A stretch of DNA of 64,000 nucleotides from Hypomyces perniciosus (lineage: Eukaryota; Ascomycota; Sordariomycetes; Hypocreales; Hypocreaceae), in NCBI GenBank assembly GCA_008477525.1, contig SPDT01000003.1, forward strand, positions 3,038,001-3,102,000. The letters are read 5' to 3'. The translations under genes were made by a program, and so were the position numbers. The notes beneath the pieces were generated by a model. The model searched no databases. It saw only the letters and a list, made by a program, of their open reading frames with translations, and had not been told where the DNA came from. Positions 13,942-48,313 of the stretch are shown piece by piece (within the stretch, counting starts at the first letter, position 1; every line of letters begins with the position of its first letter).

Positions 13942-14019
13942 AAACCAAACACTGAATCTTGCGCCGCTGTTTAGGAATAGCATTATAAGTCGTAACACGC
14001 TTCCGCGCATTATAAATTA

Positions 14020-14945
14020 TTATTTTAAGCATATATCTAGCCTACTATATAAATTCACTGCAAATAGTAAATAGTAGGAATACTCGAAAGCGTTATTGCG
14101 ACCCCAGTTTAATTATAGCTAAGTCAGCAACCTTAACCTATAGGAAAACTATATTAAAGCCTTAATAATAGGATTAAAGCATTATATTAAATCTAATAGC
14201 TAGACAGACTTAAGAGAACTTTAAAAGCTCTTTTTCTATTTTACCTTTAACTCTATAACCGAGTTCCTTTTTAAAAAAAGCTTTAATAGCTAGTCTAAAA
14301 ACTTAAATAAATTTAATATAAAATATTTTAACTTTACCTATACCTTTAATTAACCCTAGTTAATCTTATCCCTTTTTATATATCTTAGGCTTTATTATTA
14401 AATAGCTTATAGTATAAAGTTTTATCGCTTAATAAAAGTAGTTTATAATTTTATCGACTATTTTATATAGCTTACCTTTAAGTAAAGTGCCAGTAAAAAA
14501 ATACCTGCTAAAGATAAGAAATATATTTTCTTTTATACCTTTACTAAAAAAATTTAAAATTTAATTAAGCTTTAATCTTAACTGTTTAATAATTTATTTA
14601 TAGATTAAAATATTATAGCTTTAATATTAAAATAATTCTTTTATCTACTAGCTAACCTATAATATTCTATTATTTTTTACTATCTGTAAATAATTATTTT
14701 AAAAAACTTTAAAACCTATTAATACCTTTAAGATATTATATTTAAAATAATAAAAGGCTGCCAGTATTTATATTAATACTTTAATAAATACTTATAGTTA
14801 TATTTAATTATCCCTTTTAATATTTATATAGTATATATAAACACTATACTCCGTACTAGTAAAGGACCTAATAGTAAGTCTCTGATTTATATAAAGTAAA
14901 GAATAGATATTGGCTATTCGGTATATAACAGTACTTACTATTATT
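14020..14945 (+). pseudogene. RIP-degraded cytochrome P450, CYP52-like
   Basis: One plus-strand frame, read through stops, keeps a chain of CYP52-type landmarks in the right order. These are L-L-R-P-Q-F (near 14,090), T-D-L-R-E-L, L-F-F-Y-F-T-F-N-S-I-T-E-F-L-F (near 14,235), and K-G-C-Q-Y-L near 14,755. Y-L-I-I-P-F-N then stands for the family's R-L-Y-P-x-V-P-x-N, followed by T-I-L-R-T-S-K-G-P-N-S-K-S-L-I-Y for the D-T-x-L-P-x-G-G-G-P-D-G-x-S segment, and G-Y-S-V-Y near 14,920. The frame is lost before the haem-binding cysteine loop, so the 3' end is missing. Stops are TAA/TAG at expected Gln, Arg or Trp positions, which fits RIP. CYP52-type enzymes hydroxylate alkanes or fatty acids; in this context it may have been a tailoring oxidase. 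The gene lies directly downstream of a Gypsy relic. Confidence 0.75.
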
Positions 14946-15081
14946 TATAACGTTTGAACGTTTACTAATACTTAGTTGCTAAGGTATATACCATGTATCG
15001 CCGCAAACATCTATGGGGAGACGATGCGTTCCCACCCCGAGGACGCACAATCAAGACTCGGGAGTGCCCAGTCATCCCCTG

Positions 15082-16785
15082 CTAAGAGGTACCATCCTGA
15101 TTTTGGCCGTCCTCCGGAGTATCATTATCGGCCTTAAATCTGATACTTCCAAGGATCACCGCAGCGCACACGAACATTAGCCCTGCAGCGATGAACGGCA
15201 GACCAATCCAAGAACCTCCCAAATCCAATCCGGCGCGGAAGGTAATTGCAAGTAATGGCCCCGCCACCAGAGAGCCGGCGACTTCTAGGGCATTCATACT
15301 GGTGTAGAGCACGCCAATATGTCTCCCTTTTGCAGCTAAGGCAAGTAGGCCACGGGCAATGAGATTGTAACCAGAACCGAGAGCAAGGGATCCCATACCA
15401 ATTACCAGAAGGGCCGGTACACTGGCAAGTCCTATACCAAATGCTCCCGCTGCTAGCAGAGCAATGCTTATACGTGCGAGCCATAGATCTCTGGTGATGG
15501 GTGAGAGTCCAAGCTTCGCAACAAGTAGCTGGCTCACCGCCGGAAGCAGTACAAGGAAGAGAACAAGCGTCGTGAACGAGCGGACGGACAGCAGGAGACC
15601 AGCCTGGAGGAAAAGAATTAACTTTTAGTGGGTAGGATGGGGAGAGGTGAATATCTGACCTGCGACCAGGACCATCCGTACCGCTTGGTGATATACTGCA
15701 ACAGAACAACCTGAGCATTTCTGCCCAGGGTTGTGAATAAGAGGCTAAGAAGGAGAAGTCCTAGCTGTCTGTTCTCCCAGAATAAGTATCGCGCTGTTGC
15801 AATGAATTGCTTCAGCCCAGACGAAGGCGGTCCATTTGCAGCAGATAGCTCGTTGCCGTCAGATGACGGGATGTCTGTGCTGGGGTGGCCGGAATCCTCT
15901 GTATCTTCAACTGTGCTGTTCCTACCACTGGTCTCAGGCAAGGAGAGTGCGATTAGTATCGAGAGTGCAAGACACCCGAGGCCAGTGAAAACCGAGAACC
16001 AAACACCTATCTGCATGGCAAAATACGCTAAGGGACTGGAAATAAGATCGCCTACTAGCATTGCTGCGCCAATGTAGGAAAAAGTCGTAGATCTAGAATA
16101 CGTGTCAACTTTGCGAGCACTTCTCTAAATGGGAACGGTTGGCATTTACCTCTGTTCTTGGGGTGATATGTCGGTGGCGATTGCAAAAACCATAGCACTA
16201 TACACTCCCGGCCCGCCTCCAATGAAGGAGAACGTTGAAGACAGCCATATCATACGGATAGGGAAGACAGAGGGGAATGAGCCTACATATGGTCAACTTA
16301 GCTTAGTGATACACCACTCGAGCTGTTTGAACGTAACACAGCTTACAAATAATAGCAGTAAAACCTTGCACAGAGACAATTCCTAGGATTGAGAGGGCAA
16401 GAACTACCCGCCGACCATACCTCTCGGCTGCCACGCCATAGGGAACCGCTGTCAGTAGGCCTGGAATAAGCTCGAGCGTTCCCTGCCACCCCAGTAGGAA
16501 AGAGAGCTCGGCCTGAACGTCGCGATCCTTACATCGTGGGTCTTGTGCTCCACCATCGAGATCTCGATGGTAGTTTTGGCAGATAATCGTCTCTATTATC
16601 TCATTTAGAGGAATGGAGTTAAGAGAGCCCCCCATCTCAATGACGATAAGCAAGATCAGGCAGGGAATAAGGATAGTTAACTGGCTGGAAGTGATCTGCT
16701 TCCCCGTTCGCCTTTCACTGTGGGTCTCACTTCCTCGGCGAGAAGTCAGGAGAGGAGTCTCTTCGGTCTCATGATCTGGGGTCAT
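15082..16785 (-). CDS. Major facilitator superfamily transporter, 508 aa, four exons
   Basis: Exons: 16,785-16,347, 16,282-16,150, 16,092-15,660 and 15,603-15,082, separated by introns of 64, 57 and 56 nt. Lengths sum to exactly 509 codons. The ATG at 16,785 opens a cytosolic tail (M-T-P-D-H-E-T-E-E-T-P-L-L) before the first membrane helix. The MFS signature G-V-A-A-E-R-Y-G-R-R lies between helices 2 and 3, and F-I-G-G-G-P-G-V-Y-S-A in the fourth or fifth helix region. A hydrophilic Ser/Glu-rich central loop follows, then six further hydrophobic segments. It is a multi-spanning membrane exporter or importer with unknown substrate; similar transporters often accompany fungal secondary-metabolite clusters. 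It neighbours two UstYa-family genes, which supports that context. No disabling change seen. Confidence 0.85.
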
Positions 16786-17494: not shown

Positions 17495-18663
17495 TTAGAG
17501 ATCTTCCACAGTTTTATTCCATCCCTCTGGAGCAAAAATTGAAACAGTATCTTCTGGATTGGGTCCAAAATCAGAGTAGTCTACGAGAGAGCCATTCTCA
17601 ACGTGCAATCGTTTGTTGGGGAAGTCGATCGTGCGATCACGCGCCCATTCTCGTATTTTTGAGAAATTGCGACACATATGGACATTTCCCAGTTCCGGTT
17701 CCGTAATCTTGGAAGGGAGCCATTTGTACCCGATAATACTGATATCGGAGTGGCAAATTAGGGACTGCCGAATCGACTCGATGCAGTGATCTGGAGACAA
17801 GACCAACGATTAGTAAGTGAGTTACAGCAACGGATTCATCATCAGATTGGCGATCTATTTACCAATATGTACCCATTGGGGGTAGTTTATCGTCCCATCT
17901 GCATTTGCCATAGAGGTATTATAGCGACTGGGGTAGAACCCCTTTCGAAGCGTATTCTAATGCTGTGTGTAAGTGATGTCTCAACTTTGAGTTGATAGAG
18001 GTTATAGTTAGGACATACCAGACAGTGTAACTCGTGGAAAATATCAAGTCCAACCATGTAATCTTGCTCCATGCCGGTATGGGGAGCATGTACTGAGTCA
18101 TTGATCAAGCGATGATAGGCGTCTGCGTCAATTCGCAAAGTGACTCCATCTTCAATGTTTGAGAAGTATGGGATTAGTAAGAAAAGTCCAAGTGCCATCT
18201 GATTTAGGACACTCACCGTCATACATATCGCTCCAGAGGTCGTCTTTCTCGTCATTCGGCCAGCCCTGATAAGGGGAAATATCTTTGTTAAAGGCCCTGT
18301 GAAAGACTTGAGGGATATACTCCACAGCCTCATTTGCAGGTGCTTCGTTACTCGTCAGCAGTAGGCCCGTATCTCCAACTCACAAGAAACATTGGGTTCA
18401 TACAGTACGCCTCTGGTCCATGGTCCGCATCATACATGTGCGGGCAAGACTCGGTGTGGCCTGCCGACAAAAAAAAAGAGAATGAAGGCCGCAAGGCATG
18501 CATTGATCAGCCAGGGTAGCAGAATCCAGAATCTCCAGGAGACAGATGCTTTGACTGCGAAAACAGGCTGGGCTAAGGTCAATTGCTCCGTTAACAGAGA
18601 TGCATTCTCTTCCCAGCTTTCGCTGCTCTCGCTTTTCGGGCCTTGTTCTAGTTTATCATGCAT
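17495..18663 (-). pseudogene. UstYa-family (DUF3328) oxidase, gene 1, single frameshift
   Basis: Exons by splice and frame: 18,663-18,404, 18,342-18,217, 18,149-18,019, 17,956-17,863 and 17,790-17,495. An N-terminal membrane anchor (W-I-L-L-P-W-L-I-N-A-C-L-A-A-F-I-L-F) is followed by the Y-S-P-A-N-E-A-V-E-Y motif created at the first splice junction, then S-P-Y-Q-G-W-P. Both hallmark motifs are present: H-E-L-H-C-L and D-H-C-I-E-S-I-R-Q. UstYa proteins are membrane-anchored oxidases that modify or cyclise RiPP core peptides (for example in ustiloxin formation). The five exons total 907 nt, one more than a multiple of three. The discrepancy sits at a run of nine T after the anchor (plus-strand 18,470-18,478), where eight would keep the frame. 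This may be a true frameshift or a homopolymer sequencing error. Confidence 0.88.
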
Positions 18664-20113
18664 TGTCGTTGGTCATTCGATGGTGGCTTTACAACCTGGG
18701 AGACTGTTGACAACCTTTAACAGGAAGAAAGCAGGCAATAGAGGTTGGAGAGGGGAGGGGCTGGTGCGAACATAATGAGATTGGGAATCTAATACACCTG
18801 GTAAATCTGTTGAGAAGCTCCCTGGGTGTTATTCGGCCGCAATCGTCAGAGCGCAGCTGGTATGTCCGCGTTGGAGTCCATCGGACGTGATTGAGGGTGT
18901 TGGTTGAGGCATCAGGTCTACAAGCTGGGATGCCTAGTCTCCACTCGGGGCTAAACGCCGCATACTGGAACTTCTGTATGTGAGTTCTAAAGCAGACATG
19001 AGAGATAAACATTATAGACTTTTTCACCTATGAACCAAGGGACTAAAAAAAGAGAGTACACCATGTCTGCCTTAAAGGTACATAAAAGTAAAGTTAATAT
19101 AATAAAGTTAAAATATAAAGGTAAAAGAAATAAGATATTATAAATAAGTTGCAGATAATATATATAGTACTATTATATTATGATATTAACCTTTTCAATA
19201 TGTAATATTTATTATATATTTAATTATATTTAATAAATAAACAAAATCTAGAAAATATATTATATTACTTAAATATTTAATTTCGTATATATTATATATA
19301 GATTCATCTTAAATTATCCATTGCAATAGAACAACAGTAGTACGCTTTAGGTATATTAAATATAACTGCCTAAATGGCTATCCTTTTACGGAGTACTCTT
19401 GTCCGTTACCTAGCTAGTAGCCTGGGCATCCAGTTGCTACCTGCGGAGTATGAAGTACCTAGGTGCTCAGTATTGCTGTTGGTTCTAAAATCTCAGCCAC
19501 GTTTTGTCAACTAGGATCGTTGTCTTCAACTTCGGAGTATTATGCAGGTTCTCATATGGATGTCCGAGATACCTAACCGAGGTTTTAGAGCCAACAACCC
19601 TTATGTATCTTTTGCAACTGTGCTGTTCGCTCTAAAACCTCGGCTACTTTGCCAAGTCAAAAACAGCCTCATAATGGCATACGAGTAATACTACTACTTT
19701 GTAGATACACTGCACAGCATCGGTGACTACCCACCCCACACGAAGCTCAGACCCGTAATCTCGCAATCTGCAACCTTCGCGCTCAGAAACGGAGCGTAGG
19801 AGCGGTCCGCAGTGCCGGTGGTTTTAGGTACTTCCGCAATGGACTTAGCACGACGCTGGAGAGGTAAACATGACTTCAGTGGGGACGCGACGCAACTCCC
19901 TCTGGCGATGTGGTACGCTCAAGGCTGCGCACTGCACTCCGCGGAGTATTGAGTCATGGATTGTCCCCAGCAACTTCGACTCGAGGAAATGCAAAGCAAT
20001 TTTTCGACTACCCTTCACCCGCCTTCCACAGAGAACCCTACTGCTGTCAGATAACGTACAGATATTTCACCATCACGCTTCTACACAGCATGTTTCTGGT
20101 CCGCATTGCCAAT
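18664..20113. promoter_or_regulatory. Divergent promoter region of the two UstYa-family genes
   Basis: The region lies between the minus-strand start of UstYa gene 1 (18,663) and the plus-strand start of UstYa gene 2 (20,114). About 19,080-19,330 is AT-rich; 19,380-19,950 is not and carries four CGGAGTA words and a three-copy 20-40 bp repeat, one copy inverted. A shared regulator is plausible but not shown. No coding frame is convincing here. Confidence 0.5.
19577..19643. repeat. Perfect 15-bp inverted repeat in the divergent promoter
   Basis: CCGAGGTTTTAGAGC at 19,577-19,591 is the exact reverse complement of GCTCTAAAACCTCGG at 19,629-19,643, with a 37-bp spacer. A related direct copy lies at about 19,470-19,512 (ttctaaaatctcagcc). 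The ends are CCG/CGG, the half-site type read by Zn2Cys6 regulators, but a site function is only a suggestion. Confidence 0.6.
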
Positions 20114-20618
20114 ATGGTCGATCGCTTTACTTATACTTCGATTCCGGAGAACCTCGATCACGGAGAAATACTATCTGTCAAAGCCCCGTCTCGAATGAAA
20201 CGCTGGTCCGGAGTGTGGGAGCTTCACTTTAAGGTGTTGACATTCGTACTTGTATTTTGCCTCTTTGTCTTATCTAACGGTATCTTCTTCGCCCTTGGGA
20301 GACGCTCCTGGAGTCTGGAAGACTGTGGCAAGCAGTTGTCCACTTGGTGTAGGTCACGAATCAATCTTACTCCAATCGCGGAAAACTCTAAGCTGATACA
20401 TTGGTGCAGCACCAGCACTAAGCGCGATCGAATATTACCAGACCACTTTTGAGGGAGAGTTCATGGCACCGTCAGTCTGGCGAGGTGAGCCAACACCAGA
20501 GCTGGATGCAGCATGGGAAGACATTTCTACGGGCGCAAGTTCGAGTTTTCGCATTCAAAGAGGTGATCTATATCGTCTCAACAAATCAGCAGACGCAGAA
20601 GATGCCTTAGGATTTAAC
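20114..20618 (+). pseudogene. UstYa-family (DUF3328) oxidase, gene 2, 5' part (split by a LINE)
   Basis: Exon 1 runs 20,114-20,348; a 61-nt intron (GTAGGT...GCTGATA...CAG) follows; exon 2 starts at 20,410. The protein begins M-V-D-R-F-T-Y, has one membrane segment (L-T-F-V-L-V-F-C-L-F-V-L-S-N-G-I-F-F-A-L) and acquires W-S-P-A-L-S-A-I-E-Y-Y at the splice junction, the conserved entry motif of the family. W-R-G-E-P-T-P-E-L-D-A-A-W-E-D follows, also typical. The frame runs into the insertion at 20,618, where a LINE tail of T residues begins. The target sequence is repeated at 32,643-32,658 and the same frame resumes at 32,659. An in-frame upstream ATG at 20,090 is possible but adds residues unlike the family. 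Confidence 0.88.
20603..20618 (+). repeat. Left 16-bp target-site duplication of the LINE in UstYa gene 2
   Basis: TGCCTTAGGATTTAAC occurs here and again at 32,643-32,658. It lies within coding exon 2 and directly adjoins the T run that represents the LINE 3' tail in minus orientation. A 16-bp duplication fits target-primed reverse transcription. Confidence 0.92.
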
Positions 20619-23600
20619 TTTTTTTTTTTATTACTATTTACAACCACTCTGTATCTAGGTATAACAGCCTCATCTAGGCAACAGGTCAGTAGGAGCTAAA
20701 GGTCTAGACCTCTATTCGCTATATTTCGCTAAACAAAGGAAAGTTTTAGTATATTTTCAGTCTATATCTTATAGAGGGGGGCCATATAGGTTTACCTCCT
20801 CCACCAGCTTCTAGAAAGCTTTGCTTCCTTTAAGTCTTAGTAGATATATAACTGACCTCTTGCCGCTAGGTATTTCGGGGAGGAAGCTCCTCGTTATATA
20901 GCATTTAGTAAAGTGCCCCGGCTCTTTAGGGGAGCCGCATCTGCAATAGGATTGCATATTGTGGCCAAAACGGTTATAGTAGCTTTAGAAGTCTCTATAG
21001 CTAGACCTTTCTACTAGCAGCCTATATAAAACAGGTCAAGGGAGTTTCAGTTCTAGGGGATTTATAAATACTCCTAGGCCTTATAGTTAATAGTTTTTTA
21101 AGGAGTTCGCCTTTTAATACTTTTCCTAAAGGGTTATTCTTTCTGCTTTTACCTAGCGTTTAATATATACTAAAGTGCTTTAACTTTAAAAGGGGAAATT
21201 ATAGGCTATCCTTTCTTTCACTAGTTTATCTGCTATTTTATTGCCTTATATATCTTTATAGCCTAGTACTTAAAAAATAAATACTTTATAAAAGTATATC
21301 TTTTCTGCTATATATTAAAACTATATAAACTTTTTTTATAATAAGGTTAAAGCTTTGCTTAATAGGCCTTTAACTATTAATCTATTATTAAAAAACGTAT
21401 ATTTTATTAATTCTAGGGTTATTCCTTATAAGTCTAGCTATTATTTTAATTGCCTTAGCAGCTTTTACAGCTTCTATATTATAAACCTCTATATTAGTAA
21501 ATAGCCTGTAGTCTTTATAGACTTTAACTTTATAATATACTGCTGCTCTTTATTTAGTTTTCCTATTAAGTTAAAAGCTGTTTAAATAGGCTACTGCTAT
21601 TAAGGCTGGCAATAAGTCTATTAGTTTAAAGTGCTTTTATATAGCTACCTTTTTCCTAAATATTTTAAAGCTTAGGCCAGCTTTAATAAAATAAGGTTTA
21701 TAAGTAAAAAGAGTAAGTTAAATAAACCTGCCAATAAATTTAGCTATCCTCTATAAATATATTGTAAAAAGTTAAATGTTTAGTTTATTAATCCTATTAG
21801 CTAGCAGATAAAAATAGTCTAAACCTGTAAATTAAGTAGTATGTTTTAGTCTTGCTTAGGTAAGAACTATAAAAGTAGGCGGGATATTAGACTCTTTATA
21901 AAGTACTGGGATAAAGGTAATCTTCTAAACTAAAAAGACAGCGCAAGCTATAGTTTTAAAGGCTTTATTTAGTTTTACTGTAAGGTTATTAACGCCTATA
22001 TTTATTATTTTATTAAAGTTATTCCTAGATTTTCTTTTTAAGCTAGGCCACTATGCCTCTATACTATATAAAGCGATTAATAGTATATAGGCCTTAGCTG
22101 CTATAGCTACTATATTAAAGGGGGAGCCTTTTTAGGTTTTATTAAAGCTTTTTAAAAAGTTAGCTGTCTTTAAAGCTTTACCTGCTTAGGCCTTTATATA
22201 TTTTTTAAATAACAGCTTAAAGTTAAGAATAATACCAAGCTATTTTATATACTCTTTAAGGTTAACCTATTTCCTTTTAATATTATTAAATATTAAAGGT
22301 TAAGTCTATATTTTTTATAAAAGTAAAGGAGTTTAACTTTATTTAAAGTAAAGGAGATTATATTTTCCTAGCCTTATTAAACTGCCTAGTTTAATTTATT
22401 TTATAGTATTATTAAAGTATAGCCTATATAAGGGCCTATAGCTAAGAAAGCAATATTATCTATATAGCTAAAGCATTTATTACTGGCCTATCCTATTTTT
22501 AAAAGTAAGGCAATATATAATATAAATAAGATTAGTAAAAAGGGGGATCTTTAAAGAGTTTTATATTTAAATTTACTGTAAGGGAGGGTAATACTATCCC
22601 TTTTTTAAATAAAGACTATATAGTTACTTAAAAAAGACTTTACCTATTTAATAAATTAATCTAGTTACCTTTATTCTTTAAATTATAAAGTTATATAATT
22701 CTTTATTATAATATTAAAAGCTTTTAAAATATTAAAGGTAAAGATTAATATTTCCTCTCCTTTAAAGAGTGCTAGTTTTATATTATAAATAAAGTAGGCA
22801 ACAAGGTCTATAGCGCTCCTTTTTAATAAAGCTTTAAAATATTATCTTAAAAGTATTTTATATTTAAATATATTTTTATAACCCTTTACGCTAATAGCCT
22901 TTTAAAGCCTTTGCCTATATATAATAAAAGTAAGATTAGCTGTTAAGCTTTATATATAAAGTAATTTGCCTTATTTAGTTTAAGTATATAAATTACTTTA
23001 GTGTTTTAGAAAAAGGCTAGGTAATATCTAATCTTTAAATATCCTTTAAAAAGCTTATATATAAAGTCGCAGACTACTAGCTAGGCTATTTTAAAAAGTT
23101 TTATTAAGATCTTATCTGCTTTAAAGATAGTATTCCTTACTTTAATAATAGCTTTTATTACTTTTTCCTTACTTAGTTCCTTATTTTAAAGGATATTTTT
23201 AAAGGGGCAGATTAAGTAATCTAAAAAGGCATTTACGTCTTTAAATACTTCCTTGCATTTAAAGACTATCTTCTATAAAAAGGTAACTTTATCTATTAAG
23301 TCTATAACCTAATAGTCCCTATTTATTAAAGGTAATAGTTAAAACCAGTTAATAGCCTTCTTTTATTTAACTACTTAAAATATACCTTTACTTAATCTTA
23401 CTGCAGCTATAATTAAGTTTTAATAGGCTGCTTTTTTTTATAAAATAGTTATATATAAAGTCTTTTTAGCAGTTTCTTTTTCCTTAACTATATTAATAGT
23501 CGCTATTACAGCCCTTTATACCTTTCTGTAATTATAATCCTACTATAAGGCGCTATAACTGTTTTAATGCTTTTTTTCCCCGGCCCCTGTTATAGTGGTA

Positions 23601-23805
23601 GTAAAGAGGTTTTGTAAAGCTTAGGCTGCCCTATTTTGAGTCCTTTTATATAATACTATTAAGGTTTAGGTCTGGCAGGCAAAATTTATAGCTGTATATT
23701 AATTAATTAAAGTCTAAGAGGGATTTAAATAAAATATAAAGCTTACTTTTAATAGTTAACGGGACTATTAGGTCTAGTAAAGTAATAATAAATATAAAGT
23801 AGTTT

Positions 23806-24203
23806 GTTGAGGGGGAATTGGCACTCCAAAACATATACACAACACATATACACCTATATATAATAACTGGTATTAAGCGCGGGAACCGCGCTCCTGACAG
23901 AACCACAAAGCGGCGATTAAGTAATATAGGGACTAAAAGATACTGCAGATCATTTAATCATAATGCCAGCAGCTAAAAGCAACCAACAGTTACCTTTATA
24001 CGCCTCAGCGACTATATTCTTATAGGTGGGGTTATATATATTAAACGGGGAAAAAGGTTACTTATTATTAAACTAGGTCTATCTGTATATCTTTATACTC
24101 CTGTGCTTTCCTAATCCAGTAGCTGCTTAAATAAGCGGCCAACCTTTCTCGGGTAAGCTAAAAGAAAAAAGCGGGTGCGTTAGGCATATCAGTTACCCCC
24201 AAC
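23806..24203 (+). mobile_element. MITE-like element, copy 1, perfect 10-bp target duplication
   Basis: The 398-bp segment runs from GTTGAGGGGGAATTGG to CAGTTACCCCCAAC; the ends form an imperfect inverted repeat of about 14 bp. AAAGTAGTTT occurs immediately on both sides (23,796-23,805 and 24,204-24,213). It has no coding capacity. Copies 2 and 3 are at 25,245 and 29,375. Duplications of 9-10 bp are typical of Mutator-like elements. Confidence 0.8.
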
Positions 24204-25244: not shown

Positions 25245-25645
25245 GTCGGGGGTAACTAATATACTTAACACACCAGCATTTTTTCTTATTAACTTACCTA
25301 AGAAAGGTTGGCTGCTTATTTAAGCAGCTACTGGATTAGGAAAGTACAGGAGTATAAAGATATACAGATAGACCTAGTTTAATAAATAATAACCTTCTTC
25401 CCCCTTTAATATATAACCCCACCTATAAGAATACAGTCGCTGAGGCGTATAAAGGTAACCGTTAGTTGCTTTTGGTTGCCGGTATTATAATTAAATGATT
25501 TGCAGTATCTTTTTAGCCCCTATATTACTTAATTGCCGCTTTATGGTTCTGTTAAGAGCGCGGTTCCCGCGCTCAATACTAGTCATTGTATATAGGTGTA
25601 TATATATATTGTATATATATTTTAGAGTGCCAATTCCCCCTCAAT
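25245..25645 (-). mobile_element. MITE-like element, copy 2
   Basis: Reverse-orientation copy of 23,806-24,203, starting GTCGGGGGTAACT and ending AATTCCCCCTCAAT. Flanks tttatacttt and aaaatactag share only part of a duplication, consistent with later decay. It lies about 1 kb from copy 1 inside the outer LINE. Confidence 0.78.
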
Positions 25646-32642: not shown

Positions 32643-32658
32643 TGCCTTAGGATTTAAC
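32643..32658 (+). repeat. Right 16-bp target-site duplication of the LINE in UstYa gene 2
   Basis: Exact second copy of the 20,603-20,618 sequence. The coding frame of the interrupted gene passes through it unchanged. Confidence 0.92.
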
Positions 32659-36869: not shown

Positions 36870-38232
36870 TCGGGATAAGGGAACATTTCGTCATCAGGAC
36901 CAACGTCTTGTTGCCTGCCATAGTCATATCTCATGAACAGACAGTCGAGACCGCAGGGCCCACCCAGCACATGAGTACGTCCTTCCTCATGCAGCTTCGT
37001 CTATATTCAAGATGTGATCATGAGGGTATTATTACGAATGTGCTAATTCCTTCTTATCGCGTCCCAACCTCCAATACTTAGCAGTTGATATGCTGATCGA
37101 ATATTGAGCTTCCAGCTAGCTGATGATCATCTACAGACCACAATTGTTTCAAGGAGAGAGTTCTGCTACCAGGGTAAATGAAGCTCCCACATAAGTGCCA
37201 TCGAGCCACCGCGTAGCTTCTAGAAATACACCCAGAATTACGTAAAACACGCCAGAACATATGTTACAGGCTAGTGTTGGCTCACTTCACTGGAGTATGC
37301 CAAGAGCTTTGGAAACTTTGTGGACAGATTATGAATCGGATAGAATCATGAGCTAAGGGGGGGGGCCGCGAGGGCAGATGGCCCTCATCCCTGGTGAACT
37401 TTTGCGTGTTTTTTTTGGGGTTGCGGAGACGCCGCGGTCCATCCAAAAATGACGAGATACTTCTTATGTCTATGATGATGGGACGGAATTGGAGGGTCGG
37501 TTAAGCACAGTTTCTTAAGAGCTGTTGGCTGCTGTTTACTGCGACATGCCAAGAACTGTTAGCTATCTATGCCTACGTAACTGGAAGCTACATGCAGTAA
37601 ATAATGTGATATACGGGGTTACCCTTCATGATATAGTATACAATACAGGTAATATTTTAAGTTTAAATTTCGTTTTATTATATGATTTACGTTTATTAAC
37701 TAGATTTCTATTTCATATAGCGAATTAAGATTTTATAGTTGACTGTCATTAGATGATATAAGTATATAGAGTATGTATTTAGTATAAATATGTGTTTGGG
37801 TTTAAGTAAACAACAGTAATAATGTGTCTTTATATTAATTTAAAGTTAGATTATCACTAATATTGGTATTATAATTATGATAATTATTACTAGATTTTAT
37901 TATTTAATTAAATATAATATTTACTAGAATACAAACATGTCCCTTATACATCACCTTTTTTCTAAGCTTTATTAATTAAATTAGATAATACCACCCCTAA
38001 TCCTTTACTCGTAACAGATCCAATTTTAGCCCATCATACGGTATTAAGACATTTCCATTATTAATCCATACTGCCAGCCTTAATTATGCTTTGTTAATGC
38101 AACTCAGAGCAAAGTATAAGTAGGGGCTCTCTACCCTCTTCGCCCTGGATTTCGTCAAGCTCTCTTCATAGCAGCCATCACCTTGCTCATCACTTTACTA
38201 CTTACTGTAACCACCAACCTCTATCCATAATC
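36870..38232. other. Intergenic region upstream of the repeat-peptide gene
   Basis: 36,870-37,600 has ordinary composition but no recognisable gene; short open frames on both strands have no motif or splice support. 37,640-38,000 is AT-rich. The last ~200 bp are the presumed promoter and 5' leader of the gene at 38,233. Confidence 0.5.
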
Positions 38233-38777
38233 ATAAAGTTCTCGAATTTTCTCCTGGCCGCTGCTGCTAGCGTTGCCTCTGCTGTCCCAATCACGGCTGA
38301 CGTAGATACCAACTTCTTCTCCCCTGCTACTTGGGCTATCATTGTTGCTAGCTATGAAGACAGTGATGTCGTTAAGCAATTTAAAAAGCGTGCCCTTGCT
38401 GCTGACGCGGATACCAACTTCTTCTCCCCTGCTACTTGGGCTATCATTGTCGCTAGCTACGAAGACGGTGACGTTGCTAAGCGATCTGTCAAGCGAGGCG
38501 CTGTAGTTGCCCGATCCATTGATGAAGCTGTGTCCCTTCTTAAAGAGCGTGTAAGTTTTAACATCTTTTGGCACCTTGTTGCCTGTTCATCCCAACAGTG
38601 GAATGGGAAAAATACTAATCTGTTGGGAACTAACAGGCTCCCGAAAATGCAGACATTATCCTTCCTGTTGCTTACATCCTCCTTGCGAAACCAGTAAGTT
38701 AATCATCGTATGACTATAAACCTGTTTTATATCGCTAATGTTAAATCTTCGCGAACTGGAAGGATGAGAGCGATTAA
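38233..38777 (+). pseudogene. Secreted Kex2-site repeat protein; candidate RiPP precursor, start codon lost
   Basis: Exons 38,233-38,550, 38,637-38,693 and 38,763-38,777 (introns of 86 and 69 nt with GTAAGT donors) give a 129-codon reading. It opens with a signal peptide (K-F-S-N-F-L-L-A-A-A-A-S-V-A-S-A). Two 35-residue units share the 19-residue block that begins D-T-N-F-F-S-P-A-T-W-A-I-I. Dibasic sites follow the units (K-K-R, and K-R-S-V-K-R). Secreted repeat precursors with Lys-Arg sites, cut by Kex2, supply the core peptides of UstYa-dependent RiPPs, and two UstYa genes are neighbours. The first codon reads ATA where the pattern calls for ATG (38,233-38,235), and no other in-frame ATG precedes the repeats. 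It could instead be a small secreted effector. Function is inferred. Confidence 0.7.
38299..38508 (+). repeat. Two-unit, 105-bp tandem coding repeat
   Basis: The sequence gataccaacttcttctcccc recurs at a spacing of exactly 105 bp (38,305 and 38,410). Over the shared 19-codon block the two units differ at two positions, both silent (GTT/GTC and TAT/TAC). This points to selection or conversion at protein level. Confidence 0.85.
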
Positions 38778-39554: not shown

Positions 39555-42500
39555 TCAGACCGCATCTTTTCTCATTGTTGTGCTCCCTGTCACGCCAATG
39601 ACCTTCCCAGCATGCAGCTCCACAACAAGATCCGCATCTCGAATAATATCGACTCGGTGGGCTATGACAACGGTAGTGCAGCCAGAAAACGCTTCCGTCA
39701 TTATAGTTTGCATGCATGCTTCCGTGTCACGATCCACGCTACTTGTAGCCTCGTCCATGAGAATAATCCGACTCCTAGTGCTTGTGTGGTGCAAAAGAGC
39801 ACGAGCAAGGCAAAGGAGTTGCCTTTGACCATGTGAAAGCCCGATGGTTGCCAAGTCGGCATCGAGGCCATCTCTGGCCCTAATTACTTCCCAAAGACCG
39901 ACACGGGATAGCGCAGCTATCATGTCCCCGTCTGAGACCGAACCTGAATCTTCTGGGGAGAACGGATACAGATTGGCACGAAATGATCCGGGGAGATAGA
40001 TAGCGTCCTGGGTAATGGTGGTAATGCGGGAGCGGAGGTGCTGGCGGGTAATGGCAGTGATCTCGACGTCGTCTATCAAGATAGAGCCAGAAAACTCGAT
40101 CAGGTGAAGAAGAGTCAGGATAAGTGAACTCTTCCCACTTTTAGAATGATATTGTCAGTAATCTCAAAGCCTTTGTGGGTGAATTAGAAATACAGATACC
40201 TCCCAGTTCGACCCACAATGCCGACCTTTTGGCCTGGCTGAATGACAAGAGAAACATCATCAAGTACAAACTTTTCGGCAGCATCTTGAATACTGTACAT
40301 ATATCAGCAATCGACTCTAATATACCCTTTTTCTTCAAACTTACTTGTATTTGGCACTGACATGACTAAGCTCGATCTTGCCACGTGTTGGCCAATCTTC
40401 AGGAGGTTGAGCGGGCTCATATGGCTCGTCCTCTACTGGAGTGTCAGCGACGTGTTTCTTCAGGCGGGCGATGGCACCCAGTGATGTCTCCAGCTTAGTC
40501 CAGGAGTTAATCAATTCGGATAGACTTTGGCTGAACCCAATAATATTAATCAAGGCCAAACCAACAGCACCCTGGGTCGTTGTATGTGTGAAATTCAATG
40601 CAAACGCTACCAGCAGTGTAGCAATACATAGCACAGATATGTCTAGAACCAGCGTTAGCCAGCGTTGGATACAAAACATCAAGTAGTATGGTTTCTGCGA
40701 ATAGTTGAGGAGCCGCAAACTATGAGCAAGGAACTTCGATTGCCAGTGAAAGGCACGTATATGCTGCACGCCTGTGGCTATCTCTGTGAACTGTGTATAG
40801 ATTGGTGACTTGGCTTCAAGGTCGAGATGCCGCATTTGGCGGGACGTTCGTAGGTAGTATCTCTGCAGAAAGTATAGGGCTACTAGAAAGAATGGAATAG
40901 TAGCTGCCGTATACTGAGCTCCAGAGGCAATAATAGCGACGTCGCATAAGATGACGAATGTATCTAGAGCAGTCAGTGGTCCTGTCTAAATGTGACTTCT
41001 GAGAAGAGTTATCATACAACATGTCAATTCGAAAACAGACATTGGGAGCACCTGGTTAACTAGAGTCATGTCTTGACTGAATCTGTTATACTTTCTTTTA
41101 GCAAGAGTACAGGAAGCTATCAATAGTAGCGCTTACCTATTGAGTATTGTTCCAGTATCTGTCATGGAAAAATACCACAATGACGCCCTGAACAACCATC
41201 AAAACCTCCACTATGCTTGATATATAGGGGAAGCAAACCTTATCACAGTGTCTAGCAGCAGTCGGTGGAGATTCTCAGCAGATTTGGGCACGAGCTTTAG
41301 CAAAAAGAATCTAAAAGACCATGAGCCAGTTATCATGACCTAACCGGAGAGGTCTTACCCGACTGCGGAGAATGCCGTCAGACATGACAATACTGCCCAG
41401 GCGGCATACCCAGCAAAATACCAATTATTTTCTGGATCAGTCTCAAGCCATATGCGAATCCAGATCTCTGTTATCAAGTCAGCGGCGGAATACAGGTTGG
41501 AGTTACGCAGACGAATCTGGTGGAGATGCTGACCTGGCATTTTAGTCGCAATAATGAACGCAGCTGCTAACAGCAGAAACATTGCAAACGGCAATTTTCC
41601 AATAGATTGAAGGTAGAAACCATACAAGGTCAGATCGCCAACCTGGTGCTCTAAAGCTCTGTTGTTGTCCATACCAGTAGGAGTCTTGCCTACTTGGACT
41701 TGACGCTCGGACTCCTGAACTCTTTCCGTTGGTTTGATCGTCTCGGTGACGTTTTCCGTCCGTTGAAGCCTGTCGATGTTTTTCCTTGTAGACATTCTGC
41801 CTTGAGTGTCGAGCGTAACGACTGTATCAGCCCAGGCAAGTTGCTCAACTAGACACCAAGCACTGTAAATAAGGTTGAATACTAGTAGGAAGTATTGCCT
41901 ACCAATGTGAGTAATCAAAATGACAGTAGATCGGCATTTTCGCAGAATTCCTTCCTCCCCGAGCAGCCGACTGAATGACGCGTTTGCCGTCTTACGATCT
42001 AAAGCACTGAAAACATCGTCCAGCAATACGATTTGTTTTCGAGAGTAGACGGCTCTTGCAAGTGCCTAGAAATTGTCAGCTTGTAAACGTGAATCCAAAA
42101 AGACCAATCCTCAGCCACATACAACACGTTGCCGTTGGCCACCACTCAGGTTAGAGCCGCCACTGCCAGCGTGAGATTGGTCACCTTCAGGTAGCTGTCT
42201 CATATCTTCATCTAGTAAGCAAGCATGCATTATGGTTTCGTACCAGGCCAAATCGAGTTGCTCTTGACCCAGGACGTTGTCGCGGATAGAGGTATTCTGT
42301 AGCCAAGAGGTCTGGTCACAATATGCAACGTCTGCATGCTTGACGTGTACAGAACCTTGGCACAGATAGGCCTCGCCGAGAATTGCCCTTAAGAGCGTTG
42401 ATTTCCCCGAGCCAACAGGTCCAACCACCATAGTTAAACTTGACTGTGTTAAATTGAGGTTGATGTCGTGGAGGATGGGTTCAGTCTCCTTTCCAACCGC

Positions 42501-44644
42501 AAATGATGCCCCTTGAATCTGAATCATGGAATCGCCAGGTGACAGTTCCGAAAACTTTTGCTTTGTTGTGATTCGTTGAAGTTCGTAGCCATTATGGCCG
42601 TGTCCAGAGCCTTGCGATGATGATCCTTCAGCCCGGTGTTCATCCATAATTAAACGTTGCTCAGCTCGTTCAGCCAAGAGAAGAAAGCTTTGTATCCGAC
42701 TGACGCAGCCCAATATGCTCGTAAACATCGGGTATGCCAGCAGCAAAGCAGCCAAGGGGTGGGAGACGAGGGTGATAATCGACAAGGTTGTAAATGCCTG
42801 TGTAGCAGTTATACTTCCTCCAACCTGAGTCCAAAATAGACCTCCCGCAATGATGAGAACAGGCGTTATCGCGTTGGAGAATGTTGCTGTGGGTGTGTCA
42901 GAAGTATAACCATTCATGGGATGCTAAATACCAGTCTTACCTATCGTGTGCGTTGTGACATTTAACGTCCTAAACTTTTTGGAGAATTCCATTTCAACAA
43001 CACGGAGGCCTTGAATGTGGTCAAACACTGAGGGACCTAGCCCCATCATTTTAATACCCTTGAGTTGGGCAAGCACCTCAGAGGTTGTAGATACCCGTTT
43101 CTGGATTTTCTCGTTCCAAGCCATCCGAGCCGGTCCCATCCTCTGCGCGATGTAAAATGAAGCAACGGAAGTTACTATCAAAATAATCGTTAATAGAGTG
43201 TACAAAGCATTGCTGGCGGAGATCGAAACTCACCTAAACCGGGTATAGCAACTAAAAACGATGCGCCGCTAACGATTCTCGCCAGTAGGTAGATGCCGAC
43301 CCCGAGCTCGATTATATTCGCCCAGACATCGTGGAAGTGCTCAATTCCCATCGCTATGCCGTCAATATCGGTACTCATAAGAGTAACGGCAGCAGAGGCT
43401 GCAGCTGCGCCACCCTCCAGGCTTAGAGCCTTTTTAAATATGATAGCGACAAGAGCTCCTCGCAGCATGGTTATAAACTGGAACACCAGGTGCGTGTAGT
43501 ATGCCTTTGAAAGCTAGAGAGATATCGGAACTCCGGTCGGTGCCACACATAGACGTGCGTTGCCACTTACCGCTATGCCTAAGTAGACCAGGGCCGTAGC
43601 CCCAATGAGACCACCTATGACATTTCCGGGGAGACTTGTATCGCCAACAGCATCAACGATCCTAGGGAATAGGAACGGCTGGGCAAACGAAAATCCAGTA
43701 AAGCATAGCCTAGGGAGAATCACCACTAGTATCTGGCGAGCGAAGGCAAGAAATATCGCCTTCAGGAGGCAATAAGTTGAAGTTTTATCAACTTTTAGCA
43801 ATTTCAGTATTCAATACCGCGCAGTTGATAGATATAGGACTTACTGGGTCCCCAAGCATCCTCCAGGATGGAGAGCAGATTTTCGGAATCGAACTTCGAG
43901 CCAATATCTTCAAGGTTGCCCACCGTCAGAAGAGAACGGTATCCTGCCAGAAGAGTCGAATTCAACCACCAAAAGACGGAACGGTTCCAGAATCCACTTA
44001 TTTCTTCCTGACTGATAGTGGAAGTTATGGTGTTTCCATAGAATAAGGAACGCTTAGGTACTTCTTCTAGGAACAAGATAACAAGCTTCAGGGACAGAAT
44101 TACTACCGTGAATGACCCATTGATATGCAATCCAGGTCTGATAAATAGGGAGCGGGCCTTCGCGATATCGAATAGGAGGGTAGAGGATAGGTAGATGCTG
44201 AGAAGGGTCGAAGGTCGGAGAGAATAGCGGTGTTTGGCGAGGAGCAGAACACCGATGCAGAGCGAGCTAATGCAGGAGAATACGGCGGCGGCAATGGAGG
44301 TCTTGGTTCGAGCGACCATCGGCTGGCTCCAGAAGACTAGGTTTGCAATCTGAAACGCTAGGAGAACCGTGGCCACGGCCTATCCAATTTCGCCTTGTGT
44401 TAGAGACAGCTGCTACTTGGACTTCGATGGGGTCTTCAGTTTTATGACTAACAAGCTTTATCCATAGAAGAATACCTGGCTTCGCATAAAGTGGCTTGCG
44501 CAAGAGGCGATAGATGTATAAAGGCGAGATGGAAAGCAATAAAGCAGAGGGCAGTATGGTCAGGATGGCCTCTTCGAAGAGGAGGGTGAAGTCGAATTCA
44601 TCCCTCAGCTGAGGGCCCAGCGAGTTGTCATTGGTCTCATTCAT
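39555..44644 (-). CDS. ABC-C (MRP-type) full transporter, about 14 exons
   Basis: Exons (minus): 44,644-44,453, 44,379-43,845, 43,791-43,571, 43,513-43,234, 43,174-42,942, 42,886-42,123, 42,065-41,903, 41,848-41,359, 41,310-41,239, 41,187-41,137, 41,082-~41,020, ~40,981-40,345, 40,292-40,200 and 40,137-39,555. The N-terminal five-helix TMD0 is typical of ABC-C. NBD1 has Walker A G-P-V-G-S-G-K-S-T, signature L-S-G-G-Q-R-Q-R and Walker B L-L-D-D-V-F-S-A-L-D. The second membrane domain has D-T-G-T-I-L-N-R-F-S-Q-D-M. NBD2 has Walker A assembled across an intron (G-R-T-G-S-G-K-S-S), L-S-H-G-Q-R-Q (His in place of the usual Gly) and Walker B I-I-L-M-D-E-A-T-S-S-V-D. It would export organic anions or metabolites. 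One junction (40,981-41,020) is unresolved: both intron choices form TGA across the join and reading through meets TAG, so the gene may carry a nonsense lesion. Confidence 0.85.
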
Positions 44645-45621
44645 GGCTGGCTACTAGTTGCTATTCTGGGCGCTGTTTTTCGCACTGTTCTTCGAGCTGA
44701 TATGGGTGCTGATATGTGCGCTGTCTCCTTCTGCTGCATATATGTAGCTTCAATCGACTTGAGGAAAAGTGGAAGAAGACGAACGCTTGCGTCGTCGAGA
44801 GGGGAATCCAAGGTGATAAACGTGCCAAGCCAACAGGTTGAACAGGTCCCCTACAGTGGAGTTCCCCCAACAACAGTCACGGATAATAATGGCGCCTTTT
44901 CTTGGCAATCTTTGCACAGAATATCTCCGGTTGGTTGGAGAAATGTCCGCAGCTCAGGGCAGCCAAGAGTACTCCTCAGACTCCATTTGGTCGTGATAGA
45001 CGCTCAGATTGAAGCAGCCCCTAGCTGTAGCAAGGTACAATGTAATGCTGAAATATTGAAGGGGGGGGCTGCTGGCTTCTACCTGAGTCATGCCATGATA
45101 AAGCCTACAACCGAAATAAATCCACTATATGCCTACAATTCTCACAAACGTTTACCTGGCGATTGCCTCGTTTTAGGGGCGCGTTATAATACGTACTCTT
45201 CTTGCTCCTGGCGGCCGGCCTAGGTTAAAAAGCTTGACCCAATTATAAATAAAAAAACAAAAAAACAACCCTTATTCAGTACTTCGTGCTCTTGAGTCTT
45301 GATTCTATACTTCGTATATCCTAGTCGATTTGAGTGCGCACAAGAAAACACGTGTAATTAAGCTGCGATGGCTGCGCCACTGGCTTTGCCTCGGTTGGCT
45401 ATGATTTGTTGGTTGGCAGCCCCTTGTGCATCTAGCCGTAGGCTGCCTCTTTGCTCGTTAGCGAGGCGCACTTAGAGCCAGTCTTAGTGAAATGACGAGG
45501 CAGTTTCATTGTGTGCCTCACAAAGATGAAGTGAAATAAATACCTGAAGCCATTCCTCTGCTCGACACCATGGCGCCGCAGATGGCATATTCGTTGATCC
45601 TATCGACCAAAGAGAGACAGC
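44645..45621. other. Intergenic region between ABC transporter and ankyrin gene
   Basis: Divergent: the ABC gene reads left and the ankyrin gene right. A plus-strand open frame at 44,702-45,223 has no recognisable domain and atypical composition for a gene. I treat the region as promoter sequence. Confidence 0.5.
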
Positions 45622-46824
45622 ATGGAGAAGATAAACCTGACTAAAGACGGCGACAAGCAGCTTCAGGTAACATCCGAAAATGAACACAATATCCTCACGT
45701 CTTTTTACCACTCCATCGCCAACAGACGCCCTGATATCGTCTCTGATCTCATCACGCGTGAGCTCATATCCCCCGACACACCAAATCTTCGAGGCGAAAC
45801 TCCTCTCTTAGCAGCCGTGCGCGCCAACGATCCAAACATCATACGCGCCCTTATCTCTCTCGGCGCAAATGTTGACGGCTACGGACAAGTACATCCCCTT
45901 GACCGGCTACCAACTATACAGCGCACGCCTCTGCAATTTGCCGCTGCAGAGGGCAAACTCAGTCTCGTCAAGATCCTCCGCGAGCTAGGTGCAGACGATT
46001 CCCTCGTTGCCCCGGACGGGGCCATCGCTCTCCGTCTAGCTGCTGAGAACGGCCATCGGGAGATCGTTGAGTGCCTTCCTGCTCGTCGTGCTGGGGCTTG
46101 GAAGAGATGGAAGGCGACACATGCGAAGGAGATGCGCCGCATTCGCCGCATCTTGGCGACGTTTGGCTCAATTATTAAATTCTTCGCCTGGCGTATTCCG
46201 AGGTTCTTCTGCTGGACTCTCCCTAAGGAGACCTGGGAACGTCGCCATCGTGTTGGCGGTTGGTGTCGACGACAAATCAAGGAGTTTCCTAGACGCACGA
46301 AGGAGGTAGCGAAACTTACACTTCGTGGCATAAAAAAAGTGCCCAAAATCATCAAAAAGGTACCAAGGAAAGTATGGGAAGCCATCAACCGTTTGCCACG
46401 CGCTGTATGGATTATCTTACGGTGGATCGGCAACGGGGCGAGGAGAATCGGTGGCGCGGTCGCGGAAGCCGTAAAGCGGATCTTATCATTCCTGCATACG
46501 GCCTTCACAGCCATTGTGGATGTCTTCCAAGCTATCACCTTACAAGATATCGTCAATGCGTTCCATAATGTCCTTCGGGCGGTATTTATTGCGTTTCCAA
46601 AGGCGACTTGGTGGTTCATTGCAAACTTTAGCAACAGCACCTTCGAAGCGATGAAGGCAGCGTTTGGTATGTTTGGACAGATTCTCTGGTGGCTTGGCGA
46701 TTTTCTGTTTAAGCTGGTTCTGTTCCTCCCTGTTAAATTTTGGGAGATTTTGGCAGCGTGTGGAAGGTCAACTGTCAAAGGCGTGGATGAAGTCTTGGTT
46801 TGGATCAATCCGAAGAGGATGTAG
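45622..46824 (+). CDS. Ankyrin-repeat protein with long cationic, Trp/Pro-rich amphipathic tail
   Basis: An intronless 400-codon frame starts at ATG 45,622. Residues ~25-150 form three to four ankyrin repeats (G-E-T-P-L-L-A-A-V-R-A-N-D, R-T-P-L-Q-F-A-A-A-E-G, L-R-L-A-A-E-N-G-H-R-E-I-V). From ~155 onward the sequence changes: rich in Lys/Arg and Trp, with a loose recurring Pro-Lys/Arg-x-x-Trp pattern (L-P-K-E-T-W, V-P-R-K-V-W, L-P-R-A-V-W, F-P-K-A-T-W, L-P-V-K-F-W), predicted amphipathic or membrane-associated helices. The tail resembles no family I can name. Ankyrin domains bind partner proteins; a tail like this could bind or perturb membranes, which is inference. No frameshift or RIP-like damage seen. 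Confidence 0.8.
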   Translation: MEKINLTKDGDKQLQVTSENEHNILTSFYHSIANRRPDIVSDLITRELISPDTPNLRGETPLLAAVRANDPNIIRALISLGANVDGYGQVHPLDRLPTIQRTPLQFAAAEGKLSLVKILRELGADDSLVAPDGAIALRLAAENGHREIVECLPARRAGAWKRWKATHAKEMRRIRRILATFGSIIKFFAWRIPRFFCWTLPKETWERRHRVGGWCRRQIKEFPRRTKEVAKLTLRGIKKVPKIIKKVPRKVWEAINRLPRAVWIILRWIGNGARRIGGAVAEAVKRILSFLHTAFTAIVDVFQAITLQDIVNAFHNVLRAVFIAFPKATWWFIANFSNSTFEAMKAAFGMFGQILWWLGDFLFKLVLFLPVKFWEILAACGRSTVKGVDEVLVWINPKRM

Positions 46825-47444
46825 AAAGGAGTTTTGGCCATAGGGGCACTTATATGGCCTGGTTATGGGCTCAGCTTCATGTTTACCCCTGGCCCTGGGT
46901 ATAGCGCTAATGCTTGATTAGACAGTTGTTTTGTCCTATTAGCCAGTCCCACTTCAACCCAGCTCCTCCGAGAGATGAATTATGGCGAGTGGGGGACAGA
47001 AAAAGTGAAACCGCAAAACACATGGATCCTCCGAAAGGTAACTCGTGGAATGTTAACGCTTCTGCGATTTAAGCATATGGAAGTGGCTATATTGGAGTTT
47101 GTAATAAGAGCTATCCGGTATACCTAGCCATACGAATGTGAGTGAGTTGCGGCAAGTTGGCAAGGTGTATGTTTTGCGGCCCCATGTTCATTATCACGCG
47201 CCTGCATGATGCTGGAAGAGTTGCCACTCATGATTACTCAATTCCGAGTGGGAAAAAAGTTCCCAACTACGAATATTGTACATACGGAACAGGTATCCCA
47301 GATGCAGGCCCACAGGTCATTACGTTTTACAAAACCCATTTACTATATAACCCGACTACTTCAACACCCATCTTGTCAAAATATGTCGAAAGCCATCACA
47401 GAATTGATACACATCCACGTAAGAAATCCTATACTCGTAACACC
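46825..47444. other. Promoter region of the O-methyltransferase gene
   Basis: Non-coding sequence between the ankyrin and methyltransferase genes, both plus strand. The methyltransferase frame stays open upstream of its ATG to 47,142 but the composition there is not family-like. No other feature seen. Confidence 0.5.
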
Positions 47445-48313
47445 ATGAAGGAAGACTCGCCAATTCTGTATCCAAACCAATCCGTCGGAGAGCGGATAAG
47501 TGCCTACGCGAAAGCACACACCACTGGTGTCCCCAAGCACATCATTGAATACCATGAATACGTTCGTGGGATAATGCCCGAGACGGCAAACTACATGATC
47601 TCCATCTCCCAGGCGCAGGCCATGCTGTTCCCGGCGAAGACACTTGGGGCCAAGAGGAGTGAGTACCCTTTCGAAGAGATCGATGCATGAATCGAATGAG
47701 CTAACAAATAGATCCAGTCTTGGAAGTTGGCGTCTATGTTGGTCTCTCAAGCTTGATGTGGAGCCACGCTGTTGGACCTGATGGTCAGGTCACTGGCCTG
47801 GAGTTCAATCCCTCTTTCGCCAAGCTGGCTGAGGACGCCTTTGAGAAGCATGGCGTGAAAAACGTGGAGGTACTGACCGGTGATGCTCTCGCGACGTATG
47901 TGGTTGAATCCCTTTCGTGAAAATGACTCTTTCCTAATAGTTTCGCCAGTCGTCCGACTCTTAGCCCTGCCGAGCCGTATGACATGATCTTCATCGATGC
48001 GCAGAAGTCTGGCTATCCGGAGTATCTCAGCACAATTCTCAGGTCATCCCAACCCGGATCCCAGAGCCGCCTACTCCGACCGGGCGGCCTAATAGTCGCT
48101 GACAACATCTTGAGATGCGGCCTCGTGGCGGATGACAGCGAGGATAACCCGTGGCGCCAATTCGATTTTGGACCTCAACGTCGTGAGTATTGGAAGTCTG
48201 AGGACATAAAGGCTCTGAGGAGGTGTAATGAGATTATTAATGAGTCAGGCCGACTGGAGAATTGGCTTTGCGCGTTGTGGGATGGCGTCAACATTGCTCG
48301 ACTTCTAGATTAG
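47445..48313 (+). CDS. SAM-dependent O-methyltransferase, caffeoyl-CoA OMT-like
   Basis: Exons 47,445-47,658, 47,712-47,895 and 47,950-48,313 give 254 codons (253 aa). The third exon could start at 47,941 instead, adding three residues, because two in-frame acceptors (TAG and CAG) lie 9 nt apart. Motif I is V-L-E-V-G-V-Y-V-G-L-S-S-L, formed just after the first splice. The post-I acidic residue lies in T-G-L-E-F, and motif IV is Y-D-M-I-F-I-D-A-Q-K. L-L-R-P-G-G-L-I-V-A-D-N follows, all as in Methyltransf_3 proteins. These enzymes methylate catechol-type or other hydroxyls using a divalent metal. Length is normal (about 230-260 aa). It could act on a small aromatic or a cluster product; the substrate cannot be read from sequence. 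Confidence 0.9.

What the first reader, a model, noticed from the sequence alone, without database searches (positions are those of the whole stretch)
13942..48313. Remains of a UstYa-dependent RiPP-type gene cluster, dispersed by transposons
Within 34 kb lie an MFS transporter, two divergent UstYa-family oxidases, a secreted Kex2-site repeat protein, an ABC-C transporter, an O-methyltransferase and a CYP52-like P450 relic. Fungal RiPP clusters of the ustiloxin/phomopsin/asperipin type combine a Kex2-processed repeat precursor with UstYa proteins, tailoring enzymes and exporters. Without the 12-kb LINE nest and the 3.3-kb hAT the UstYa genes and the peptide gene are close neighbours. Nearly every biosynthetic gene is damaged (frameshift, insertion, lost start, RIP) while the MFS looks intact, so the window may record the death of a cluster. 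That these genes formed one pathway is inference.
Basis: partly seen in the sequence, partly recalled or inferred. Interest (0 to 1): 0.9.

Follow-up and report, generated by a model that had tools for sequence, protein, structure and literature searches.

The report
Broken fungal cyclic-peptide gene cluster
A stretch of fungal DNA holds what looks like a small peptide-making gene cluster that was disabled when jumping genes landed in it; the kind of cluster is already known, and this is one more, damaged, example.

Summary
Partly right. Two UstYa-family genes lie head to head (17498-18672 minus; about 20195-33154 plus), each keeping two HXXHC motifs. The second is cut by a 12-kb insertion with a perfect 16-bp duplication. 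A hAT-like element with 8-bp duplications separates it from a two-unit Kex2-site repeat protein, otherwise about 1.7 kb away. An intact MFS gene adjoins the pair.

Best support: of 7 other UstYa loci in this genome, 2 have a Kex2-site repeat ORF next door, one an intact six-unit precursor.

Not borne out: general damage (MFS and O-methyltransferase splice open); general RIP damage to genes; the P450. Membership of ABC-C and O-methyltransferase is not shown; ABC-type hits near 2 of 7 other UstYa loci are a weak hint for ABC-C. The repeat protein has 2 units where published surveys ask for 3, no homologue was found, and it weakly resembles a non-secreted repeat family.

Best reading: a disabled dikaritin-like UstYa/precursor core, probably in a Hypocreaceae fungus; a new, broken member of a known kind.

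The parts
15082..16785 (-). MFS transporter, 508 aa, open through three GT-AG introns
   Evidence: splice; PF07690 E 5.5e-18
17498..18672 (-). UstYa1: membrane segment plus UstYa domain in exon pieces; two HXXHC motifs (HELHC at 18036; HIDHC split by an intron at 17869); no intron found that joins the N-terminal piece
20195..20618 (+). UstYa2, 5' part: membrane segment and start of the domain, ending in the left copy of the 16-bp duplication; the start is read by eye and uncertain
20619..32642 (.). 12-kb RIP-marked insertion (LINE-like nest) inside UstYa2; 16-bp target duplications at 20603-20618 and 32643-32658
   Evidence: composite RIP index +0.93
32643..33154 (+). UstYa2, 3' part: HQLHC at 32698, HTDHC split by an intron at 32886, one in-frame stop in the domain
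33516..36861 (.). hAT-like element: 21-bp terminal inverted repeats, 8-bp target duplications at 33508-33515 and 36862-36869
38230..38556 (+). Kex2-site repeat protein (candidate precursor): signal-peptide-like head without start codon, two 35-aa units, KKR/KR sites
38637..38702 (+). possible second exon of the repeat protein (in frame after a GT-AG intron at 38551-38636; read by eye)
   Evidence: sequence; inference
39558..44650 (-). ABC-C transporter (membrane region and two nucleotide-binding domains in exon-like pieces); link to the pathway not shown
45622..46824 (+). ankyrin-repeat protein, 400 aa, one open frame, between ABC-C and O-methyltransferase; not obviously biosynthetic
47445..48313 (+). 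O-methyltransferase (Methyltransf_3), 256 aa, open through two GT-AG introns; link to the pathway not shown

Best explanation
The left half of the locus (about 15-38.7 kb) is the disabled core of a dikaritin-type peptide pathway. In working order, a secreted precursor with two 35-residue units would enter the ER, be cut by Kex2 after Lys-Arg in the Golgi, have its aromatic-containing core cross-linked by the two UstYa oxidases encoded head to head, and be exported with help from the neighbouring MFS. A 12-kb retroelement nest inserted into UstYa2 and a hAT element landed between UstYa2 and the precursor. The precursor has no start codon and UstYa1 is broken near its N-terminus, so the pathway should be dead although the MFS is still open. 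Shown here: genes, motifs, insertions, damage. Inferred: that they formed one pathway, the cross-link chemistry, and the order of events.
For: Both genes match PF11807 and keep two HXXHC motifs. Insertions carry perfect target duplications. Without the hAT, UstYa2 and the repeat gene are about 1.7 kb apart. The repeat gene is one of 3 stretches with a strong Kex2-site repeat (10 or more of 12 residues, a bar set after seeing the list) in the 264 kb scanned; the other two lie beside UstYa genes at 2 of the 7 other UstYa loci. One of those is a six-unit precursor about 0.85 kb from a UstYa gene, with relatives in Trichoderma and Rhypophila. Published: 22% of 7878 KEPs have a DUF3328 gene within 15 genes, at a mean distance of 3.09 genes (PMC7329392, abstract and passages). 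The unit holds Tyr, which is commoner in KEPs beside DUF3328 genes (65.6% against 38.2%).
Against: Only two units, below the 3 or more of both published surveys. No homologue of the repeat protein at E<=1, though the control with the six-unit precursor found only two relatives, so fungal cover is thin. A weak resemblance to a non-secreted repeat family. No tyrosinase on this contig. Five of 7 other UstYa loci show no such repeat ORF. The scanned DNA was chosen around UstYa genes; a random background could not be fetched. The ORF of the other pairing (L023) shows no signal peptide in the stretch seen.
Confidence: 0.6

Rival explanations
1. The UstYa pair and the repeat protein are unrelated neighbours. 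The repeat protein gave a linear secreted peptide, or is a secreted offshoot of the FFSPAQW repeat family.
For: Two units only. Resemblance to the FFSPAQW family: hhalign E 4.2e-5, probability 70%; BLAST 36.6 bits against a maximum of 30.8 in 1000 unit-preserving shuffles; E 0.02 in the genome search. That family lies at four places, none within 60 kb of a UstYa match. 78% of KEPs have no DUF3328 gene within 15 genes (PMC7329392, passages).
Against: At about 5 KEPs per ascomycete genome (PMC7329392, abstract), a chance neighbour within a few kb of a UstYa pair is unlikely. Two other UstYa loci in this genome show the same pairing. The resemblance was picked as the best of a genome-wide search, so it is biased upward.
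Confidence: 0.25
2. The UstYa genes tailored a polyketide or other non-ribosomal product; the repeat protein is incidental.
For: UstYa/DUF3328 enzymes also occur in polyketide and NRPS pathways (PMC12048977, passages). Ketoacyl-synthase pieces lie at C8:3110678-3111690, about 8.7 kb right of the window. At the C23 locus a ketoacyl-synthase lies 0.7 kb from a UstYa match.
Against: The PKS near this window is about 54 kb from UstYa1 and 39.5 kb from the 3' end of UstYa2, with ankyrin, methyltransferase, DUF7580 and subtilase genes between. No condensation-domain match on C8 lies within 290 kb of the window (78 of 115 candidates scored).
Confidence: 0.1
3. The whole 34-kb stretch, including ABC-C, O-methyltransferase and a P450 relic, was one cluster.
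For: The genes lie within 34 kb. ABC-C pieces hit ABC-type genes (30-44% identity) near 2 of the 7 other UstYa loci (L034/L035 and L039). An O-methyltransferase occurs in a lichen UstYa clan (PMC12048977, passages).
Against: No P450 found. An open ankyrin gene sits between ABC-C and O-methyltransferase. MFS and O-methyltransferase are open while the core is broken. MFS and O-methyltransferase pieces hit nothing at E<=1e-3 at the other UstYa loci, and the ABC hits may be only the general ATPase domain. [quoted passage not shown]
Confidence: 0.05

Closest known systems
Dikaritin RiPP clusters (ustiloxin, phomopsin, asperipin-2a)
   Same: UstYa-family oxidases with two HXXHC motifs, a Kex2-site repeat precursor with a signal-peptide-like head close by, an MFS neighbour
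   Different: two units only, no core of the ustiloxin/phomopsin kind, no tyrosinase on the contig, core genes broken; product unknown
Six-unit NNYPKYG precursor beside UstYa in the same genome (C23:5067226-5067687; L032)
   Same: signal-peptide-like head, Kex2 sites, UstYa next door
   Different: six near-identical 23-aa units, open with a start codon, a PKS about 7 kb away, different core; relatives in Trichoderma and Rhypophila
FFSPAQW repeat family (L010-L012; P0001-P0008)
   Same: tandem units around FFSPAxWA
   Different: no signal-peptide-like head, no Kex2-bounded units, dispersed, no UstYa match within 60 kb

Membership tests
UstYa/DUF3328 (PF11807) | matches the curated profile above cut-off | tested here: met
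   pieces at 58.2, 39.0 and 36.3 bits against 25; one UstYa1 piece at 24.0 is just under
UstYa/DUF3328 (PF11807) | two HXXHC motifs, proposed mark of RiPP-related members (PMC12048977, passages) | tested here: met
   HELHC and HIDHC; HQLHC and HTDHC, the second of each read across an ordinary intron
Kex2-processed repeat protein (KEP) | at least 3 repeats between Kex2 sites (both surveys) | tested here: not met
   two units; criteria
Kex2-processed repeat protein (KEP) | signal peptide | tested here: inconclusive
   hydrophobic head (mean hydropathy 2.15 over 13 residues) but no start codon; no signal-peptide predictor on hand
Dikaritin cluster | DUF3328 gene(s) close to a repeat precursor | tested here: inconclusive
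   UstYa2 and the repeat gene are about 5.1 kb apart, 1.7 kb without the hAT, but the repeat protein fails the three-unit bar
Dikaritin cluster | tyrosinase (older five-gene definition; PMC12048977 notes working clusters that lack one or more of the five) | tested here: not met
   4 matches in the genome, none on C8
Dikaritin cluster | transporter near the core | tested here: met
   MFS adjoining UstYa1
Dikaritin cluster | cross-linked peptide product | not testable with these tools
   needs chemistry

The most novel reading that the evidence does not exclude
The precursor's core was taken from, or copies, a conserved non-secreted repeat (FFSPAQW family): a RiPP pathway whose secreted, cross-linked product mimics one of the fungus's own (or a rival fungus's) intracellular repeat proteins.
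Probability: 0.1. Interest if true: 0.6.

Novelty: new member of a known kind. Interest (0 to 1): 0.35.

Why it matters
Fungal peptide clusters appear to turn over fast: in a Hypocreaceae comparison, 92 of 122 RiPP families were singletons (PMC10989895, passages). My one search for dikaritin-cluster decay by transposons listed 10 of 3,517 papers, none of which mentions dikaritins. Here the loss can be read in two insertions with perfect target duplications while the neighbouring transporter is still open, and the same genome keeps an open example for comparison.

Tried and rejected
Homologue search for the repeat protein: none of 21 candidates at E<=1. Search with the alignment of the repeat protein and the FFSPAQW protein: 8 hits, all of the FFSPAQW kind. 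P450 relic: not found (pattern scan for the haem motif gave only chance-like strings). LINE pieces (seven) and one hAT piece: no Pfam match at E<=1. Structure model of the FFSPAQW protein: helical, mean pLDDT 65.9, too weak to search. Literature for the cores: 'YPKYG' found one unrelated nanoparticle paper, 'FSPAQW' none. Synteny in related fungi: I had no collection of fungal genomes to scan, and the window's genome has no relatives here. In my note I wrote 6 other UstYa loci; grouping the 17 matches gives 7. The intron that splits the second HXXHC motif: of eight paralogue stretches scanned, the same split was found in L026 and L035 (plus), and in L035 (minus) beside an unsplit copy; L023 and L029 (minus) have the motif unsplit, L029 (plus) and L038 gave one motif only, and L032 none. 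So it is shared by some, not all.
Full report
Setting. The window is part of contig C8 (3038001-3102000) of a 44.0-Mb assembly in 23 contigs. NRPS frames of 9,742 to 17,037 codons look like peptaibol synthetases (recalled), and the named relatives of two of its proteins come from Trichoderma and Rhypophila, so Hypocreaceae is likely; this is inference.

What is there. On the minus strand, an MFS transporter at 15082-16785 reads open for 508 aa through three GT-AG introns (PF07690 E 5.5e-18). Next to it lies UstYa1 (17498-18672, minus), with UstYa domain pieces at E 1.4e-15 and 4e-5. About 1.5 kb away on the other strand UstYa2 starts at about 20195 (by eye). Its domain pieces lie in 20397-20696 and 32990-33154 (E 1.1e-9 and 6.9e-9). 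Between them is a 12-kb insertion bounded by identical 16-bp copies at 20603-20618 and 32643-32658, the only two in the window. Both genes hold two HXXHC motifs, the second read across an ordinary intron. The two motifs have been proposed as the mark of RiPP-related UstYa proteins (PMC12048977, passages).

The hAT-like element at 33516-36861 has 21-bp terminal inverted repeats and identical 8-bp duplications. The repeat gene follows at 38230-38556. It has a hydrophobic head, two copies of a 35-aa unit (12 differences in 87 bases compared; tandem-repeat score 314), and KKR/KR sites. There is no start codon at the head. A second exon at 38637-38702 is likely by eye. From the end of UstYa2 to the repeat gene is about 5.1 kb, or 1.7 kb without the hAT.

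Damage. UstYa2 is cut by the insertion and has an in-frame stop in its 3' part. UstYa1's membrane segment cannot be joined to its catalytic part by a GT-AG intron in the ranges tried. The repeat gene lacks a start. The MFS and O-methyltransferase are open, and the ABC-C pieces look open between intron-like gaps (by eye). The composite RIP index is +0.93 in the 12-kb nest, +0.40 in the hAT and +0.98 in the AT-rich stretch at 7-15 kb, against -0.21 to -0.83 in the eight gene stretches measured. It is +0.13 between the UstYa genes and +0.31 just upstream of the repeat gene; 9 of the 12 differences between the two units are transitions, 8 with A or T in the first unit (all). So general RIP damage to the genes is not borne out, while a light touch at the repeat gene is not excluded.

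What is not shown to belong. I found no P450: 103 genome matches, none in the window, 92 of 156 candidates scored, and 10 of 48 small open pieces scanned. An open ankyrin-repeat gene (45622-46824) separates ABC-C from the O-methyltransferase. MFS and O-methyltransferase pieces hit nothing at the other UstYa loci at E<=1e-3; ABC-C pieces hit ABC-type genes at 2 of 7 (L034/L035, L039; 30-44% identity). That is a weak hint for ABC-C, or only the common ATPase domain.

Comparison inside the genome. The 17 UstYa matches fall, by my grouping, into 8 loci: this one and 7 others. I fetched 30 kb around each of six and 20 kb around the seventh and scanned all of it and the window (264 kb; 470 ORFs of 60 aa or more with at least two KR/RR sites; single open frames only, so spliced precursors could be missed). 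With a bar of 10 of 12 repeated residues, set after seeing the list, three DNA stretches stood out (two of them also in a second frame). They are the window's repeat gene, a six-unit precursor at C23:5067226-5067687 about 0.85 kb from a UstYa gene, and an ORF with five YQWK copies at C8:2300490-2300870 about 1.7 kb from a UstYa match, in which no signal peptide is seen. Five of the seven other loci have none. The scanned DNA was chosen around UstYa genes; I could not fetch a random background. The literature gives one: about 5.25 KEPs per ascomycete strain, 22% of 7878 with a DUF3328 gene within 15 genes, and a count that peaks at the very next gene (PMC7329392, abstract and passages).

Against the reading. 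Both published surveys ask for at least three units (PMC6339444, passages; PMC7329392, section read); this protein has two. It has no sequence homologue at E<=1. The control search with the six-unit precursor found two relatives, so the database covers such fungal proteins thinly. The units resemble a small non-secreted repeat family (FFSPAQW) found at four places in this genome, in Trichoderma virens and in proteins without an organism name: E 0.02 in the genome search, hhalign E 4.2e-5 with probability 70%, and 36.6 bits against at most 30.8 in 1000 unit-preserving and 24.3 in 1000 plain shuffles. Since it was the best of a genome-wide search, I treat this as suggestive only. There is no tyrosinase on C8.

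Verdict. The left half of the finding is best read as a disabled dikaritin-like core (0.6). The right half is not shown to belong. It is a new, broken member of a known kind; by the published KEP criteria the precursor itself does not qualify.

Noticed in passing
L032:3227-3688 (-) (C23:5067226-5067687): Open six-unit NNYPKYG Kex2-site precursor next to UstYa genes, with a PKS ketoacyl-synthase at C23:5074728; relatives in Trichoderma sp. SZMC 28011 and Rhypophila sp..
   Followed up: partly
L023:6991-7371 (+) (C8:2300490-2300870): ORF with five YQWK copies at 15-aa spacing and KR/KK sites about 1.7 kb from a UstYa match; no signal peptide seen in this ORF.
   Followed up: no
L010, L011, L012; C4:1704605: FFSPAQW repeat family without a signal-peptide-like head: three copies 97-100% alike at dispersed places with similar flanks, and a fourth at 90% with a stop.
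   Followed up: partly
2988-6588: Gypsy-type retroelement (reverse transcriptase, protease and zinc-knuckle matches over cut-off; integrase and gag under it) with long open frames and little RIP marking (index +0.14) beside heavily RIP-marked DNA.
   Followed up: no
52708-54093 and 54656-55240: DUF7580 protein followed by a subtilase (Peptidase_S8) on the same strand.
   Followed up: no
59375-59456: tRNA gene on the minus strand, the only Rfam match over its gathering score in the window.
   Followed up: no
C8:3110678-3111690 (right of the window): Ketoacyl-synthase pieces of a PKS about 8.7 kb beyond the window.
   Followed up: no
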